From contig JAJYDP010000255.1 in NCBI GenBank assembly GCA_021777365.1, forward strand, positions 1-7,082: 7,082 bases of DNA, in the 5' to 3' direction. The translations under genes were made by a program, and so were the position numbers. Shown here one piece after another: positions 2,147 through 7,082 of the stretch. The DNA comes from Chloroflexota bacterium (lineage in GTDB: Bacteria; Chloroflexota; Limnocylindria; Limnocylindrales; CSP1-4). How positions within the stretch are numbered: position 1 is the first letter of the stretch; every line of letters begins with the position of its first letter. Under the pieces are notes generated by a model that worked only from the letters and a program-made list of their open reading frames with translations, was not told the origin of the DNA and did no database searches.

Positions 2147-2602
2147 TCACTCCTCCGCACTGACGGACCCTGACGTCATGCCCTCTCTCATAAGCGTGTG
2201 AGCCCTAGCGTGATGCAGCGGACAGAGCCATACCACATCCAACCAGTGCTCTTCTACATAGCCAAGAAAGTGGTGCGCGTGCACCGGCAGAGCACCACAT
2301 TCCAAACAAGGCTGCCGCGTGAGAATACCGGCTCCTAGTGCCACGCGAACGGCCACCCTCGCTCTCTGTTGCCCCGTAACGCGGCTTCGCTCTCGGTGTC
2401 GAAGCTCTTTGGCGTAGCCCTTCTCTGTCTGGCAATACCGACGAACACGAACAGCTAGACGCGCTTTAACAGCTTCGGGATGGCGCTCCGCATAGCGCCG
2501 GACTGCAGCCGCGCGAATGAGCTTTCCCTTCTCCGAATGGAAGTAGCGCTTGCAATATATCCGTGCCATTTCACGGCGTTTCTCAGGATCCTTGAACGGC
2601 AT
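2147..2602 (-). CDS. HNH endonuclease, zinc-finger type, second mobile unit
   Basis: A 151-residue protein from the ATG at 2602, which lies at the end of the leader hairpin with GGAGGG ten bases upstream. The start MPFKDPEKRREMARIYCKRY is typical of small phage HNH proteins. Two similar basic aromatic segments (about 11-40 and 48-75; 'KRYFHSEKGK' and 'RRYCQTEKGY') probably bind DNA. The nuclease domain runs from about 84 to 136: PCLECG (98-103), HAHHFLGY (108-115), VVWLCPLHH (123-131) and His135. Cys99, Cys102, Cys127 and His130 are likely zinc ligands, and the HH pair at 110-111 probably holds the catalytic histidine. An in-frame ATG at 2707, in an ATGA overlap with the upstream gene, would add 35 residues encoded by the leader; I rate it less likely. 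GC is in the 50s by eye, clearly below the neighbours, which supports recent transfer. Confidence 0.85.
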   Translation of the reverse strand: MPFKDPEKRREMARIYCKRYFHSEKGKLIRAAAVRRYAERHPEAVKARLAVRVRRYCQTEKGYAKELRHRERSRVTGQQRARVAVRVALGAGILTRQPCLECGALPVHAHHFLGYVEEHWLDVVWLCPLHHARAHTLMREGMTSGSVSAEE

Positions 2603-2700
2603 CGGAGCTAGGCCCTCCGAGAAACGCGAACGCCATCCGACAGGACCTAGCTGACGGATGGCGTTCGCGCAGTATATCTGGCTCGCTGCTAGGTCCAGCG
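2602..2700 (-). promoter_or_regulatory. Structured RNA leader of HNH gene: three hairpins with complementary 7-base loops
   Basis: Read on the minus strand. H1 (2700-2684) is a 5-bp stem CGCTG/CAGCG with loop GACCTAG. A 14-base linker containing ATAT follows. H2 (2669-2625) is a 15-bp perfect stem, a T-T mismatch, three more pairs (CAG/CTG) and loop CTAGGTC. After linker TTTC, H3 (2620-2602) is a 6-bp stem TCGGAG/CTCCGA with loop GGCCTAG. The H2 loop is the exact reverse complement of the H1 loop and pairs with all seven bases of the H3 loop if one G-U is allowed. The last base of H3 is the A of the ATG at 2602, and the SD-like GGAGGG is inside H3. The layout matches the leader at 5329-5418 despite almost no sequence identity. 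The pairing is seen directly; a translational-switch role is inferred. Confidence 0.8.
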
Positions 2701-2703
2701 CAT

Positions 2704-3339
2704 TCATGGTACTACGACTTCCACCTCGAATACGCCTCTCGCCGGGTCCAATCCCAGCCCGAGGATCGTGTCGAGCGACAGGTCGACCAGCCTCGTCCCG
2801 AGGCACTGACAGGAAGTCGTGATCGGCACCGCGAGGCACCGCCCAGTATCGACCGAGCACACCGTCACGATCTCTCCCAGCCACTGCCCGACGCGCAGCC
2901 TCGGACCCGCCGCGGCGTAGAGCCCGTGCCCCCACGAATCCCACCACGAGGCCACGCCCCGGATTGCCGGACCGGCCGCCATGCTCCCCGAGCCCGACGG
3001 CGCCGATGGCGCTGGGGTTGCTGCCGTCGCGGCGATCCTCGGCTCCGAAACGCCGACGTGAGTGTCATCCGGTCTCGACGGTCCTCCGGTCGCCGCGGTT
3101 CTCGCGGACGGCGGCCGAGGGGGTGCAGCAGACGGTGACGCCGCGCCGCTCGCCGGAGTCGTCGTATCCAGTACGGCACGGGCCTGCTGCCCCCCCTCGG
3201 GCGTCGGCACGGGAGCGATCTGCGACCGCGGCACGGGTGCGTAGGCGTAGGGCTGCTCGCCGCCCGCGCGGGACGCGCGGAGGGTCAGGCACATCGCCGC
3301 TGCCACCGAGAGCGCCAGCACGAGTCGTGCATGCTTCAC
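2704..3339 (-). CDS. Secreted RlpA-like double-psi beta-barrel protein
   Basis: A 211-residue protein from the GTG at 3339 (GTGA overlap). Residues 1-25 form a signal peptide: basic start, hydrophobic core LVLALSVAAAMCLTL, then SRA. Cys17 is not in a proper lipobox. Residues 26-125 are a Pro/Ala/Ser/Thr-rich linker. The C-terminal domain (127-211) reads GVASWWDSWGHGLYAAAGP, then a strand with Cys161 and Cys168, then TSCQCLGTRLVDLSLD (175-190) and a final EVEVVV strand. This follows the RlpA barrel (GxASWY...TAxGE...GxxIDLS). The RlpA 'NDRGP' aspartate is replaced by Thr/Ser/Cys, so lytic transglycosylase activity is doubtful; four cysteines may form disulfides instead. It likely acts outside the membrane on or near the cell wall. 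Its role in a phage operon, perhaps altering the host envelope, is inference. Confidence 0.75.
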   Translation of the reverse strand: MKHARLVLALSVAAAMCLTLRASRAGGEQPYAYAPVPRSQIAPVPTPEGGQQARAVLDTTTPASGAASPSAAPPRPPSARTAATGGPSRPDDTHVGVSEPRIAATAATPAPSAPSGSGSMAAGPAIRGVASWWDSWGHGLYAAAGPRLRVGQWLGEIVTVCSVDTGRCLAVPITTSCQCLGTRLVDLSLDTILGLGLDPARGVFEVEVVVP

Positions 3340-3698
3340 TCAGCCTCCTCTCGCCCCTCGGCGCTCCACGCCTCGGGGTACCGCTCGGCTAGGTACTCGC
3401 GCAGCTTGGCCCGCTCCGCCTTCGAGGGCGGCTTGCCGTTCGTCCCGGCACAGATGATCACGGTGAACGCCGGGATACTGTCGGCGCGACGACCGGCGCG
3501 GAGGTCGCGCTTCACGTGCTCGACCGACAGCCCCCGCGGGTCCCACGGGTGCGTGCGGTAGCCCCAGCGGTCGGTGCAGCCGTGCGACGGGTCGAGCTTC
3601 GCCAGTACGCACCCGCGGTCGCGCCCCAGCAGCAGCCGGTACAGCTCCGGGGTCACCGGGTCGGCCTGCGGCTTGGCGCGGAGGGGCGTGCGCTTCAC
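3336..3698 (-). CDS. Small HNH-like protein with degenerate last motif
   Basis: A 120-residue protein from the GTG at 3698 (GTGA overlap). After a basic start (VKRTPLRAK) come Cys30, Cys41, then LSVEHVKRD (58-65), ICAGTN (82-87) and a C-terminal helix AKLREYLAERYP (97-108). The spacing of Cys pairs, the E-H dipeptide and a Cys...Asn motif followed by 'RxxIREYL'-like sequence resembles small phage proteins annotated as HNH endonucleases. The usual third histidine after the Asn is not evident; Lys/Pro residues occupy that position. It may be a divergent nuclease or an inactive DNA-binding relative. Unlike the two other HNH genes here it has no structured leader and its GC matches the neighbours, so it looks like a resident operon gene. 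The family call is tentative; the reading frame is solid. Confidence 0.6.
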   Translation of the reverse strand: MKRTPLRAKPQADPVTPELYRLLLGRDRGCVLAKLDPSHGCTDRWGYRTHPWDPRGLSVEHVKRDLRAGRRADSIPAFTVIICAGTNGKPPSKAERAKLREYLAERYPEAWSAEGREEAE

Positions 3699-4075
3699 GG
3701 CTTCCACGTCCACAGGCCGAGGCGTCCGACCGCCGGGATCGGCCGTGAGTAGATCGACGGCGCGATCAGCTCCCACGCGAAGCGTCCGGGACCGAAGTCA
3801 CCCATGCGCTCCTCGGCCACGCCGACGTGTCGCACCACGTCCTCCGTCCGGTACGTTCCCTGCAGGTACACCTCACCGATCATCGCGCCGCGCGGCATCG
3901 CCGCCGGGTCGAAGCCCAGCTCGCGGGCGTACTGACGGTCCTCCGCCGTCCATCCCTTCGCGGCGTGGATCGCCAGCCGGCCCCGATACCGCGTATCCCA
4001 GCCGCGCGTCTCGAACCGCTTGTGGCCGGCCACGACGAGCGTCGCCCACGGCTGCGTCAGGGTCAGCGCCTTCAC
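3695..4075 (-). CDS. ASCH-domain protein
   Basis: A 126-residue protein from the GTG at 4075, in a GTGA overlap with the preceding gene. It carries the whole small ASCH fold signature: LTLTQPWA (4-11), GHKRFETRGW (17-26), RGRLAIHAAK (31-40), RGAMIGEV (62-69), GPGRFAWEL (95-103) and a final P..G..GLWTW (114-124). The E-T-R motif and the IHAAK strand are typical of phage and bacterial ASCH proteins. The ASCH fold is PUA-like and is generally thought to bind RNA or modified nucleosides; some members hydrolyse N4-acetylcytidine. Its substrate here cannot be told from sequence. In a phage operon it might act on RNA, on modified bases or on translation. Length is normal for the family and no key residue appears to be missing. 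Confidence 0.87.
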   Translation of the reverse strand: MKALTLTQPWATLVVAGHKRFETRGWDTRYRGRLAIHAAKGWTAEDRQYARELGFDPAAMPRGAMIGEVYLQGTYRTEDVVRHVGVAEERMGDFGPGRFAWELIAPSIYSRPIPAVGRLGLWTWKP

Positions 4076-4311
4076 CGCTCCAGCGCCTCCACGAGCCGCG
4101 CCGTGGCCTCCGCGAACGACACGCTCACCGCGGCGAACGTGTCGGCCAGCCGTCGCAGGGCCGGCGTCACTTCTTCGGCCACGGTCCAGCCCAGTTCCAG
4201 CATCGCCTGCTCGAAGGCCCGGGCGCGATACAGGTCGTCGGGCGGGTCCGCCCAGCGCCACGCGTTCCCGGCGTACCACGCGAGGAACGCGGCCCACGGG
4301 TCAGTCCACAT
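4072..4311 (-). CDS. Small helical protein of unknown function (79 aa)
   Basis: The ATG at 4311 shares one base with the preceding stop (TGATG) and has a strong SD, GGGAGG, eight bases upstream. A GTG at 4314 is a possible one-codon-longer start. The N-terminal part is tryptophan-rich (MWTDPWAAFLAWYAGNAWRW). The rest is predicted by eye to be two or three amphipathic helices (about 25-79) with regular Ala/Leu/Glu spacing. There are no cysteines, no signal peptide and no recognised domain. The stop overlaps the ASCH gene start by 4 bases, so the two are probably translated together. Confidence 0.7.
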   Translation of the reverse strand: MWTDPWAAFLAWYAGNAWRWADPPDDLYRARAFEQAMLELGWTVAEEVTPALRRLADTFAAVSVSFAEATARLVEALER

Positions 4312-4586
4312 CACGCGATCCTCCCTGACGCCTCGGCCTGCTTCCACTCCGGCCCTCCGAAGCGGAACGGCAGCAGGAACGAGGGGTGCATGACGACGTG
4401 ATCGCCCTTATGCGGTCCCGGCCGGCCGAACGGCCCGCCGGCATCGTCCGTCAGGCGCTCGATGATCGGCTGACCGGCGCGATCCTGCCCCTCCGGCACG
4501 AAGCCCACGACCTTGCCCTCGGGCTCGTCGGCGTCGGGATAGTTCAGCCACACCACGTCTCCGAGCTTCGGCGTCCAGTACGTCAC
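4311..4586 (-). CDS. Small protein of unknown function (91 aa)
   Basis: The GTG start at 4586 overlaps the previous stop in a GTGA. The product begins TYWTPKLGDVVWLNYPDADE, followed by a short beta-rich stretch with many Gly and Pro residues and ending in FGGPEWKQAEASGRIA. The opening 'GDVVWL' followed by acidic residues and 'GKVVGFV' is reminiscent of small SH3/KOW-like barrel proteins in phage operons, but that is a loose resemblance only. Gly/Pro-rich residues 50-62 suggest a flexible middle. No catalytic motif, signal peptide or membrane segment is visible. It is coupled to genes on both sides. Confidence 0.7.
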   Translation of the reverse strand: MTYWTPKLGDVVWLNYPDADEPEGKVVGFVPEGQDRAGQPIIERLTDDAGGPFGRPGPHKGDHVVMHPSFLLPFRFGGPEWKQAEASGRIA

Positions 4587-4747
4587 CGCCACGCCACCCC
4601 CGTGAACGTCGTGTGGCCGTCGAGGTCCCCCACCGTGATCGTGATCGCCCGGCCCCGCAGCGCGCCCCACGCCAGCCACGCGGCGAGTCGGACGCGATGG
4701 GCAAGCTCGTATACGGGGTCGCGCATCCGCCAGCGAAGGCGTCTCAC
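4583..4747 (-). CDS. Small protein of unknown function (54 aa)
   Basis: The GTG start at 4747 lies two bases after the stop of the HNH gene, with a weak GGAG/GGTG upstream; an ATG at 4726 is the alternative. The product is basic at the N-terminus (RRLRWRMRDP). A Trp/Ala/Leu-rich stretch (about 20-30) follows, then a beta-like tail (ITITVGDLDGHTTFTGVAWR). The stop overlaps the next gene's start by 4 bases (GTGA), which supports it being translated. I do not recognise a family. If the HNH unit was inserted here, this gene may once have followed the SbcC-like gene directly. Confidence 0.55.
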   Translation of the reverse strand: MRRLRWRMRDPVYELAHRVRLAAWLAWGALRGRAITITVGDLDGHTTFTGVAWR

Positions 4748-4749
4748 TG

Positions 4750-5331
4750 CTACACCAGCTCCGCGTGGCGTGAAAGGACAGTACCGGACTGGACCTTCCC
4801 GCAGTAAAGGCAATGGCCAGTCGGCGAGGGATGATGCGTCCCGTAGACACACGCCTTCCCGTCAAAGTGGCCCGTCAAAAGCGGTAGGCCGGTCCGAACC
4901 AGCCCCGCACGTTCTCGGCGTCGGCGGTGCGACAGAGCATCGCAAGTCGGGCACGACCGCCGAATACGAGGATCAGTATGACTACGTGGTCGGGGATCCC
5001 GAAACTCGTGACCATGGACACAGGAGAGCATCCGCGCGTGCTTCGCCGGAGCGCTATTGCCTCGCAGGGCATTTGCCCCTCGCGTAGCAACCGTCAAGTG
5101 ATCGAGATTGACGCAGGCCCTGTGCGGGTCACCCGGCCCGCCCGGGCAGACGAGCGGGTCGTGACAGAGATGGTCGAGCGTCAGTCCCTTAGGGATAGGC
5201 CCTCGTATCCGCTCCCAGAGAAGGCGCGTCGCGAGCTTCTGATGTTGCGTCGCTGGATCATAGCCAATCCCGTACCCCATACGGGTTAGGCGTCCGCGCC
5301 ACGGAATACAATCGCCCGCTGGTGCGTCCAC
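4750..5331 (-). CDS. HNH homing-type endonuclease with two extra zinc-ribbon motifs
   Basis: A 193-residue protein from the GTG at 5331. Near the N-terminus is DCIPWRG...GYG (7-21), then ATRLLWE (35-40), GPIPKGLTLDHLC (44-56), Cys62, Cys73 and NLDHL (75-79) with Asn87. This is the order seen in phage HNH_3-type endonucleases, where the LDH histidine and downstream Asn/His form the beta-beta-alpha metal site. A zinc-ribbon-like segment follows (Cys104, His106, Cys127, Cys130), common after this domain, then an additional one (Cys161, Cys174, Cys177). Such proteins nick or cut DNA and spread as free-standing homing endonucleases. An in-frame ATG at 5427 with SD GGAGAG would add 32 residues encoded by the structured leader. 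I prefer 5331 because the recognisable domain starts there and the leader is conserved as structure. GC content is visibly below that of the neighbours, suggesting transfer. Confidence 0.85.
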   Translation of the reverse strand: MDAPAGDCIPWRGRLTRMGYGIGYDPATQHQKLATRLLWERIRGPIPKGLTLDHLCHDPLVCPGGPGDPHRACVNLDHLTVATRGANALRGNSAPAKHARMLSCVHGHEFRDPRPRSHTDPRIRRSCPTCDALSHRRRRERAGLVRTGLPLLTGHFDGKACVYGTHHPSPTGHCLYCGKVQSGTVLSRHAELV

Positions 5332-5418
5332 GGATCTCACTCTCCCGTGTACGGCGCGACCCCGACGCGGAGTGAGCGCAGTCGGGGTCGCCGATATGGT
5401 AACGCCGCTCACTCCGGC
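5329..5418 (-). promoter_or_regulatory. Structured RNA leader of HNH gene: three hairpins with complementary 7-base loops
   Basis: Read on the minus strand. H1 (5418-5404) is a 4-bp stem GCCG/CGGC with loop GAGTGAG. A 12-base linker containing ATAT follows. H2 (5391-5356) is an 11-bp perfect stem, an unpaired T on the 5' side, three more pairs (GCG/CGC) and loop CTCACTC. After a 6-base linker, H3 (5349-5329) is a 5-bp stem CACGG/CCGTG enclosing an 11-base loop with GAGTGAG at its centre. The H2 loop is the exact reverse complement of the H1 loop and of the H3 heptamer. The last three bases of H3 are the candidate GTG start (5331), and the SD-like GGGAGAG sits inside H3. The same architecture with different sequence precedes the HNH gene at 2147. 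The fold is seen directly; the regulatory role is inferred. Confidence 0.75.
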
Positions 5419-5441
5419 TCCGTTCATTCTAGTCTCTCCGT

Positions 5442-7082
5442 TCACTGACGCGATAGTACGGCCCTGCTGGCATCGCCTTCCTTGGTGACCCGCAGAGTCC
5501 ACGGGAGCGCATCGGCAAAGTCGGTGTCATGCGACATGACCATGATCAGACCGTACTCCTCCGCGAGCGTAGAGATGGCCTCCAGCACCGCCTCCCGCTC
5601 CTGCTCGTCGCCGGGTGCTAAGGGCTCATCAAAGATAGCCGTCTGGACCTTCCGGCCGGTGCGCTCGGCCAGCAGTCCGGCGATCCCCAGCCGCAGCGCG
5701 AGGTCGACGCGGAACCGCTCCCCGCCCGACAGCAGCCCGTAGTCGCGCTCTCGACCGCCGATCTCCACCACCACGTCGAGCGTGTCCATGCTGCCGCCCG
5801 CGCGCTTCTCGCGGCTCGTCGAGAGGCGCAGCGTGAAGCCGCCGGGCAGCCGCTGCAGCGCCTCGTTGGCGTGCGCCTCGATGCGGGGGATGGCCTCCTC
5901 CACGATCAGCCGGGGGATGCCGTAGGGGTGCCACGCCTCGGCCAGCGCGGCGTACGACTGAGCGAGCCCCGACTGGCGTGCAGTCTCTGCCTGCGCCTCC
6001 TCCGCCTCGCGGGTCGCCTGCTCGGCCCGGTCCGTCTCGCGGGCCGTGACCGCCGCCTGCTCCCCCAGCCGACGCGCTGCGGCGGTAGCCTGCTCCGCGT
6101 CCGTCCGCAGCGCGTCGATCATCGCCTCTCGCGCGGCCAGCCGCTCTGCCTCCGGGCCGGACAGGGCCGCCAGCTCCGCCCGAGACGCGGCCTCCACCGC
6201 GGCGAGCGAGCCCAGCCGCTCGGTCGCGTCGGCGAGCGCCTGCCGCGCCTCCAGCCTGCGCTGGGACGCCGCCTGCACCGTCGCCGCGTGGACGGCGGCG
6301 TCTCGCTCGTACGCGTGCCACTCGTCCCGCAGCCGCTCCGCCTCCTCGCGCAGCGGCCCCACCCGAGGTGCGAACGCCTCGCCGGTCCGCACGCGCTCGG
6401 CGATGCTCGCCGTCCACTCCGCCGCCGCGATGAGCTGCTCGGCCGTCGGGATCGCGGCCAGCAGCGGACAGGCAGCGTAGACGCCGCGACCGCCGCAGGG
6501 AACCCCGGCTCGCGCCAACGCCATGTCGCGAACGCGAGCCTCGTCGTCCATCGCGCGCCGCAGGGCCTCTCGGTCTCCGCGTAGATCGGCAGACGCTGCC
6601 CGGGCGTCCTCCGCGTCGTCCTCCGCTGCGCGCAGCGCGCCGGCGTCGGGCCGGACAGGGGGGGCCGGATCGGGCTGGGCCGCGACGGAGCGCAGTCGCT
6701 CGCACTCAGCCTCCAGCCGCTCACGCTCCGTCGCGGCCCGCTCCGCCTCTGCCGCCAGCCGCGCTCGCTGCTCCTCGGCCGCCCGCAGTCCCGCCGTGGC
6801 GACCTCGGTCTCGCGCAGGGCACGCAGGCTGGCCGCCGCCTCCTCCCGCGCCACCACTGCCGCCGCTGCTTGCCGCAGGGCCGCCTGCCGATACTCCTCG
6901 GCGTGCTCGCCCTGCTCGGCCAGCAGCGCCCGGCGAGCCTCCGCCGTGGCAGCCGTCTCGCGCGCCTCGTCGCGGCGCCGCTTCGCCTCCTCGTGCCACG
7001 CGGGGTACGGGTCCTCCACCACGAGGTCCGACAGCAGCGCCATGCGCTCGGCCGGGCGCAGCCGCACGAACTCGTCGCTGCG
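5442..7082 (-). CDS. SbcC/Rad50-like SMC-type ATPase, C-terminal part (5' end outside window)
   Basis: The frame is open to the right edge, so the Walker A region lies outside; about 546 residues are visible. The first visible residues (SDEFVRLRPAERMALLSDL) match the segment after the Q-loop in SbcC/Rad50. Numbering from the in-frame GTG at 7067, a long Ala/Glu/Arg coiled coil covers about 25-380. It is split by a Pro-rich break (about 131-140) and a two-cysteine turn at Cys191 and Cys200, the likely zinc-hook apex. The C-terminal ATPase lobe has the ABC signature LSGGE (446-450), Walker B ending in Asp480-Glu481, a D-loop near 484-488 and the H-loop histidine at 513. Family members work with an SbcD/Mre11 nuclease on DNA ends; phage homologues include T4 gp46. 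The nuclease partner is not in view and may lie upstream. The C-terminus looks complete. The GTG at 7067 is internal, not the real start. Confidence 0.9.
   Translation of the reverse strand, partial: RSDEFVRLRPAERMALLSDLVVEDPYPAWHEEAKRRRDEARETAATAEARRALLAEQGEHAEEYRQAALRQAAAAVVAREEAAASLRALRETEVATAGLRAAEEQRARLAAEAERAATERERLEAECERLRSVAAQPDPAPPVRPDAGALRAAEDDAEDARAASADLRGDREALRRAMDDEARVRDMALARAGVPCGGRGVYAACPLLAAIPTAEQLIAAAEWTASIAERVRTGEAFAPRVGPLREEAERLRDEWHAYERDAAVHAATVQAASQRRLEARQALADATERLGSLAAVEAASRAELAALSGPEAERLAAREAMIDALRTDAEQATAAARRLGEQAAVTARETDRAEQATREAEEAQAETARQSGLAQSYAALAEAWHPYGIPRLIVEEAIPRIEAHANEALQRLPGGFTLRLSTSREKRAGGSMDTLDVVVEIGGRERDYGLLSGGERFRVDLALRLGIAGLLAERTGRKVQTAIFDEPLAPGDEQEREAVLEAISTLAEEYGLIMVMSHDTDFADALPWTLRVTKEGDASRAVLSRQ

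What the first reader, a model, noticed from the sequence alone, without database searches (positions are those of the whole stretch)
2602..5418. Two HNH genes share a three-hairpin, complementary-loop leader with no shared sequence
The leaders at 2602-2700 and 5329-5418 have the same order: short hairpin, linker with ATAT, long hairpin with an unpaired U three pairs below a 7-base loop, short linker, short hairpin ending at the start codon. In both, the middle loop is complementary to the heptamers of both outer hairpins (CTAGGTC against GACCTAG/GGCCTAG; CTCACTC against GAGTGAG twice). Stems and loops differ almost entirely in sequence, which amounts to covariation within one window. I cannot match it to a named RNA class. 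The known HNH-associated RNA, HEARO, goes with IscB-type proteins, which these are not.
Basis: partly seen in the sequence, partly recalled or inferred. Interest (0 to 1): 0.93.

Follow-up and report, generated by a model that had tools for sequence, protein, structure and literature searches.

The report
Self-matching three-hairpin phage RNA switch
Phages linked to Chloroflexota bacteria carry a roughly 100-base, three-hairpin leader just ahead of some genes, with a middle loop that matches both outer loops, and it is predicted to act in the RNA so that each such gene limits its own protein output through a private loop code.

Summary
Both window leaders have three hairpins, and loop 2 is complementary to loops 1 and 3. 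I found 15 further distinct members, 17 in all: 9 in 8 IMG/VR records and 6 in genomes of one Chloroflexi class. None matched Rfam. Six were found by a covariance model with no loop-pairing term: loop 1-loop 2 is perfect in 6 of 6; loop 2-loop 3 is perfect in 4, 6/7 in one, absent in one (the last two are the weakest hits). Hairpin 3 holds the Shine-Dalgarno and ends at the start codon. A -10-like TANNNT lies 5-7 nt before hairpin 1 in 12 of 17, so the RNA probably starts there. A related contig lacks leader plus nearly all of HNH1 (540 nt versus 9 nt), so the two behave as one cassette. The window and one virus with two copies use mismatched loop codes. Most likely it is a translational switch built on mutually exclusive loop-loop pairing, probably self-antisense; switching is inferred. 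Nearest precedents: phage P4 CI RNA and T4 RBS-sequestering hairpins.

The parts
2706..2711 (-). -10-like hexamer TACCAT, 5 nt before hairpin 1 of leader 1; overlaps the stop codon of the upstream gene
   Evidence: TANNNT at 5-7 nt in 12 of 17 members versus 0.35% of random windows in 13 of the contigs
2684..2700 (-). Leader 1, hairpin 1; loop GACCTAG at 2689-2695
2671..2676 (-). Leader 1, TANNNT (TATACT) in the H1-H2 linker
2624..2670 (-). Leader 1, hairpin 2; loop CTAGGTC at 2644-2650
2602..2620 (-). Leader 1, hairpin 3; loop GGCCTAG at 2608-2614; Shine-Dalgarno-like GGAGG at 2614-2618
   Evidence: sequence
2147..2602 (-). HNH1 gene, ATG at 2602; endonuclease family phrog_2340
2164..2703 (-). 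540-nt stretch (leader 1 + HNH1 except its last codons) absent from the relative G470:C78, which has 9 nt here; boundaries set by matching flank words
5426..5431 (-). -10-like hexamer TAGAAT, 7 nt before hairpin 1 of leader 2
5404..5418 (-). Leader 2, hairpin 1; loop GAGTGAG at 5408-5414
5396..5401 (-). Leader 2, TANNNT (TACCAT) in the H1-H2 linker
5356..5391 (-). Leader 2, hairpin 2; loop CTCACTC at 5370-5376
5329..5349 (-). Leader 2, hairpin 3; loop GAGTGAG at 5336-5342; contains a Shine-Dalgarno-like GGGAG and ends with GTG
   Evidence: sequence
4750..5331 (-). HNH2 gene, likely GTG start at 5331; HNH_3 (PF13392), phrog_826

Best explanation
It is a family of roughly 100-nt three-hairpin phage leaders whose middle loop is complementary to both outer loops in nearly all members, and it likely works as an RNA switch that lets a gene limit its own translation. 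Shown by sequence: hairpin 3 carries the Shine-Dalgarno sequence and ends at the start codon; loop 2 could pair with loop 1 or loop 3 but not with both at once; the loop code changes in step in the hairpins; in the window and in one virus, two copies carry mismatched codes. Inferred: transcription starts at hairpin 1. In one molecule loop 1 caps loop 2, leaving hairpin 3 weak (mostly 4-7 pairs) and translation on. As transcripts build up, or when an RNA lacking hairpin 1 is made, loop 2 of one molecule pairs with loop 3 of another, locks the ribosome site and turns translation off. The private code would keep each copy from silencing the other. The module serves replication-type operons and can also come and go together with a homing-type nuclease gene.
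For: Covariation on 13 members (A10): loop 1-loop 2 and loop 2-loop 3 pairs form in 100% of cells, 6 of 7 pairs in each changed on both sides, and 0 of 500 shuffles reach the covariation scores. Cleaner test: six members found by model R2, which has no loop-pairing term: loop 1-2 7/7 in 6 of 6; loop 2-3 7/7 in 4, 6/7 in 1, absent in 1. Start codon 3-6 nt after loop 3 in 16 of 16 members with a loop 3; TANNNT 5-7 nt before H1 in 12 of 17 and in the linker in 12 of 17; in-frame stops inside the leader in 9 of 17, so it is not coding in general. Own-loop 9-mer duplexes -13.8 to -16.0 kcal/mol against -1.4 to -5.9 for the other copy of the same record. In the 11 loci examined (7-21 kb) the 9-mers occur only inside the element. 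Straight-helix geometry on 13 members: loop 1-2 reachable in cis (at least 95% of span) in 8, loop 2-3 in 0. Empty site for leader + HNH1.
Against: No expression, probing or transcript data. L191 has no matching loop 3 and L192 only 6 of 7. L190 is followed by an open frame of only 27 aa. Hairpin 3 itself shows no double change in the three pairs aligned in A10 (one further pair does in A7). The geometry assumes rigid straight helices and fully formed hairpin 2, and 5 of 13 fail even for loop 1-2. No clear U-tract follows hairpin 2, so a short antisense RNA has no obvious end. -35 boxes are not evident by eye. Eleven of the 13 members in the covariation count were kept with complementarity in view, and R2's loop consensus was learned from them. 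Between different phages some codes do cross-pair strongly (for example L126 with HNH1, -12.0).
Confidence: 0.5

Rival explanations
1. P4-CI or c4-like immunity: hairpin 2 is cut out as a trans-acting antisense RNA that stops transcription or translation of the same leader in a superinfecting phage.
For: Same order as P4, where CI RNA pairs with seqA upstream and seqC downstream, and replication genes are kept silent (passage of PMC4825925). In L151 and L155 the leader directly precedes the MSRDDGF protein family, and in L124 it heads an operon with a DnaB-like second gene (the replication and DnaB labels are recalled from sequence, no family search supports them). The record of L155/L181b carries an integrase.
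Against: Two window copies precede HNH genes, which need no immunity. No terminator was recognised by eye. Five members from different records share GTAGTAG loops, little diversification for immunity groups.
Confidence: 0.2
2. Cis-only switch: a ligand, protein or temperature shifts one molecule between loop 1-2 and loop 2-3 pairing.
For: Linker lengths fit loop 1-2 in cis in 8 of 13 members examined; all parts lie next to each other.
Against: Loop 2-3 is out of reach in cis in 13 of 13 with hairpin 2 intact, in a rough model; no conserved pocket was seen; a cis switch does not need different codes in two copies.
Confidence: 0.17
3. Protein-binding hairpins: a phage RNA-binding repressor reads the identical loops 1 and 3.
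For: Loops 1 and 3 are identical in 14 of the 16 members with a loop 3, and loop ends are mostly conserved.
Against: Loop sequence varies while complementarity is kept, and loop 2 is the inverse sequence; a protein site predicts the reverse.
Confidence: 0.06
4. DNA-level site: a cruciform or single-stranded DNA hairpin array used by the nuclease or in recombination.
For: Leader + HNH1 is gained or lost together.
Against: The ribosome site, start codon and -10-like box keep fixed spacing to the hairpins, and non-nuclease genes have it too.
Confidence: 0.05
5. Guide RNA of an HNH nuclease, as in HEARO/OMEGA systems.
For: Leader directly upstream of HNH genes in the window.
Against: 13 of 17 members precede other, unknown or unclassified genes; 0 of 100 other viral records, 81 fetched through HNH proteins, have it; no Rfam hit.
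Confidence: 0.02

Closest known systems
Phage P4 CI RNA with seqA and seqC (immunity)
   Same: One antisense segment complementary to a site upstream and a site downstream on the same transcript, controlling replication genes (passage of PMC4825925)
   Different: Here all three partners are hairpin loops of usually 7 nt, the downstream partner holds the ribosome site, the unit is about 100 nt with the start codon attached, and it also serves nuclease genes. No Rfam match.
RBS-sequestering hairpins of T4-type homing endonucleases (I-TevI, segB, mobE)
   Same: An RNA structure hides the ribosome site of a mobile nuclease gene, with a promoter close by (passages of PMC2988022)
   Different: No three-loop code is described in the passages read; in I-TevI the local promoter makes transcripts without the structure, here the promoter-like box lies upstream of all three hairpins
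c4 antisense RNA of phages P1/P7 (Rfam RF01695)
   Same: Phage antisense RNA acting in its own immunity region (passages of PMC8201110, and PMC2864571)
   Different: Listed there for Proteobacteria and phages; no Rfam match at the gathering score in the window or 16 member loci
ColE1 RNA I/RNA II kissing loops (recalled, not from a call)
   Same: 7-nt loops fully complementary; loop changes make orthogonal groups
   Different: There the antisense RNA comes from the opposite strand; here sense and antisense loops are on one strand
HEARO / IscB RNA (recalled)
   Same: RNA next to an HNH gene
   Different: No IscB-type protein among those tested, no Rfam hit, not nuclease-specific

Membership tests
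Rfam families in general (incl. HEARO, c4 RF01695) | Score at or above the gathering threshold | tested here: not met
   Window and 16 loci with members: only hit a tRNA in L183; window 2580-5450 at E up to 5: two unrelated weak hits
HEARO | Companion IscB-type ORF | tested here: not met
   Downstream proteins tested are HNH_3/phrog_826, phrog_2340, GIY-YIG-like or without a clear family; those of L155 and L189-L192 were not run
P4 CI / seqA / seqC | One segment complementary to an upstream and a downstream site of the same leader | tested here: met
   Full in 15 of 17 members (one G-U in HNH1), one with 6/7 for loop 3, one without loop 3; covariation
P4 CI / seqA / seqC | Sequence or structure homology to P4 CI RNA | not tested
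   No P4 model was built or fetched
P4 CI / seqA / seqC | Processed stable RNA that causes premature termination | not testable with these tools
   needs RNA data
RBS-sequestering leader hairpin | Shine-Dalgarno inside a hairpin next to the start codon | tested here: met
   16 of 16 members with a loop 3 have the start codon I chose 3-6 nt after it; Shine-Dalgarno-like sequence in the 5' arm by inspection
RBS-sequestering leader hairpin | Hairpin lowers translation | not testable with these tools
   needs a reporter assay
Mobile nuclease cassette | Empty site in a relative | tested here: met
   Leader 1 + HNH1: 540 nt in window, 9 nt in G470:C78. HNH2 is in both, so no empty site for it

The most novel reading that the evidence does not exclude
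A new class of address-coded self-antisense RNA: each transcript carries its own antisense loop, a cis cap for that loop and a matching lock on its ribosome site, so that translation falls as copy number rises. Loop codes drift as matched triplets and stay mismatched between copies of one genome, like incompatibility groups built into one mRNA. Phages reuse the module for replication operons and package it with homing nucleases as a ready-made dose limiter.
Probability: 0.35. Interest if true: 0.87.

Novelty: new variant of a known kind. Interest (0 to 1): 0.74.

Why it matters
It is an RNA family with no match in Rfam 15, in phages of a poorly studied bacterial phylum, with a compact, readable loop code. 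If the mechanism holds, it is a minimal natural self-limiting translation device with orthogonal variants already present in nature, it shows antisense control packed into one mRNA leader, and it gives a concrete way to ask how phages keep mobile nucleases and replication genes from being overexpressed.

Tried and rejected
HNH specificity: rejected (genes). Coding leader: gene models start HNH1 and HNH2 at an ATG before H1 (P0001, P0006), but that ATG is the end of the -10-like box plus G (for HNH2 the P0006 model starts a few codons earlier still), and 9 of 17 leaders have in-frame stops; in HNH1 and HNH2 themselves the frame is open. Intrinsic terminator at H2: no U-tract seen by eye. HNH1 relatives in IMG/VR: by eye no element upstream in the 16 loci. 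Six actinophage loci with HNH2 relatives: none by descriptor or R2. Isolate phages as carriers: no match for two downstream proteins and one 27-nt match at E 4 for the leader. L107, with a 59% homologue of the L099 downstream protein, lacks the leader; L184 and L186, relatives by the MSRDDGF gene, lack it too, though L184 is a 6-kb fragment. Weak R2 matches on the opposite strand of the L099, L146, L151 and L166 elements (E 0.04-0.84) and L115 (E 0.86) were not counted as members. Alignment A11 (17 members) misplaced HNH2 and was not used for counts. A HEARO-type guide role was considered and set aside. Papers: nine searches were answered; no listed title or abstract start describes this element; I read passages, not whole papers, and the library lacks most subscription papers. 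Pattern hits dropped: searches gave 59 different stretches (several near-copies of one another); 9 were kept (one of them L099 again) because all three loops matched; 50 were dropped, among them L144, which matched 5 and 7 letters under loose settings.
Full report
Observation. The window looks like a stretch of a tailed-phage genome or prophage with its recognised genes on the - strand. A descriptor of this shape scored them 44 and 38, while the best of 39 hits in 23.05 Mb of simulated sequence scored 35. By energy alone HNH1 is unusual (z -3.85) and HNH2 is not (z -0.81).

Finding the family. The descriptor, run over 105 loci (1.59 Mb), gave one strong hit, L099, upstream of a gene without a PHROG or Pfam family. 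From the three examples I wrote patterns that fix loop ends and parts of the stems and scanned IMG/VR and the GTDB contigs: 59 different stretches, of which 9 had all three loops matching, 8 of them new (L124, L125, L126, L146, L151, L155, L161, L166). The other 50 were dropped. A covariance model R2 was built from these 11 with the hairpins as structure. R2 has no term for loop-loop pairing, but its loop consensus was learned from matched loops. That makes 17 distinct members: 2 in the window, 9 in 8 viral records, 6 in genomes.

The cleaner test. The first 11 were chosen with complementarity in view, so the six R2 finds weigh more. Loop 1 and loop 2 match at 7 of 7 in all six, with loop 1 sequences GGTCTAT, GTAGTGG, GGCTTAG (twice), GTACAAG and GGATAAG. 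Loop 2 and loop 3 match at 7 of 7 in four, at 6 of 7 in L192, and L191 has no matching loop 3. L191 and L192 are also the weakest hits (E 0.0028 and 0.0065 for one genome; over 177 genomes about 0.5 and 1.2 such hits would be expected by those rough E-values), so their status rests on the loop match and linker rather than on the score. On the 13-member alignment A10 both loop helices form in 100% of cells, 6 of 7 pairs in each have changes on both sides, no shuffle of 500 reached the covariation scores, and slid controls fall to 13-59% paired. Stems covary in hairpin 1 (3 of 4 pairs) and the top of hairpin 2 (2 of 3); the three aligned pairs of hairpin 3 show no double change, one further pair does in the 11-member alignment.

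Specificity and range. R2 hit 7 of 177 genomes in the class of G001 and G002, these two being seeds of the model (one search covered the same class again); 1 of 301 drawn from the whole phylum, that one being the seed G001; 0 of 169 genomes in the class of a Mesorhizobium genome; 0 of 2 further genomes; and 0 of 100 other viral records, 81 fetched through HNH proteins. Over 40 genomes the tool uses stricter filters that lose weak matches. No isolate phage was found to carry it in three searches.

Anatomy. In 16 of 16 members with a loop 3 the start codon lies 3-6 nt after loop 3, so hairpin 3 holds the Shine-Dalgarno-like sequence in its 5' arm and ends at the start codon. An open frame of 38-243 aa follows in 16 of 17 members, one of only 27 aa in L190. 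A TANNNT hexamer ends 5-7 nt before hairpin 1 in 12 of 17; random windows in 13 of the contigs have it in 0.35%. This puts the expected start of transcription at hairpin 1 (inference). A second TANNNT lies in the linker in 12 of 17 (random 1.7%). The binomial figures treat members as independent, which they are not fully. In-frame stops occur in 9 of 17 leaders, so the leader is not in general a protein N-terminus, although gene models read it so in the window. In the 11 loci examined the 9-mer loops occur only inside the element, so no outside target was seen there.

Genes served. HNH1 and HNH2, an HNH protein in L183 (phrog_826), a GIY-YIG-like protein after L181b, the MSRDDGF family directly after L151 and L155 and further down in L099, L124 and L183, and proteins without a recognised or tested family elsewhere. 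The leader is therefore a portable regulator, not an HNH partner.

Mobility. In G470:C78 the sequence runs from the stop codon of the gene before HNH1 to the flank behind it with 9 nt between, where the window has 540 nt holding leader 1 and HNH1 except its last codons. The -10-like box itself overlaps the stop codon of the upstream gene, just outside the 540 nt, and the relative has no TANNNT there. Leader and nuclease were gained or lost together; the direction is not known. HNH2 with its leader is present in both, leader 100% and gene 98.8% identical.

How it may work. Loop 2 can serve only one partner at a time. With hairpin 2 intact and straight A-form helices, the short hairpin 2-hairpin 3 linker lets loop 2 reach loop 3 of its own molecule in 0 of 13 members examined, while loop 1 is reachable in 8 of 13 (a rough model, three of the five failures come from predicted pairing inside the linker). 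I therefore favour loop 1 as a cis cap and loop 3 as a target in trans. The window and one virus with two copies carry codes that hardly cross-pair: own 9-mer duplexes -13.8 to -16.0, crossed -1.4 to -5.9 kcal/mol. A cis-only switch would not need that. Between different phages some codes cross-pair well. The outcome, lowered translation at high transcript number, is inferred.

What is known. P4 prevents expression of its replication genes through CI RNA that pairs with seqA and seqC on either side of it (passage read in PMC4825925); that is the closest logic. T4-type homing endonucleases hide their ribosome site in an RNA structure (passages read in PMC2988022). The new element combines the two in one unit with a loop code. 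It has no Rfam match and no P4 homology was tested, so I do not file it under either family. The search for prior description covered only the open-licence library, by titles, abstract starts and a few passages.

Verdict. Real structured leader family: about 0.95. Translational control by competing loop-loop pairing: about 0.5 for the stated form. HNH-specific RNA: rejected.

Noticed in passing
window 3702-4738: A second stretch of about 1 kb that includes an ASCH-like gene is present in the window but has no counterpart at the same place in G470:C78 (L193).
   Followed up: partly
L002:9900-10000 (also L003): Another MPFKDPEK-type HNH gene has a different leader: by eye, a hairpin with loop CCTTCC complementary to GGAAGG of its own Shine-Dalgarno hairpin. 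It may be an independent solution of the same kind.
   Followed up: no
L181:15246-15346: Second element of the virus that also carries L155; it lies just after the integrase gene and before a GIY-YIG-like gene, with entirely different loops (GGTCTAT).
   Followed up: partly
H1-H2 linker in 12 of 17 members: A TANNNT box, often within CGAATA, sits between hairpins 1 and 2. It may be a second promoter that would make transcripts without hairpin 1.
   Followed up: partly
L191:146-247: Weak R2 hit with perfect loop 1-loop 2 match but a short unrelated hairpin 3 (TTTG..CAAA), perhaps a decayed or different form.
   Followed up: no
L190:1500-1625: Element with three matching loops followed by an open frame of only 27 aa; it may serve a very small protein or none.
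   Followed up: no
window 5283-5642 versus L193: Leader 2 is 100% and HNH2 98.8% identical to the relative; the upstream SbcC-like gene is 79% identical overall but 97-100% over its last 200 bases, so the block may mark recent exchange.
   Followed up: partly
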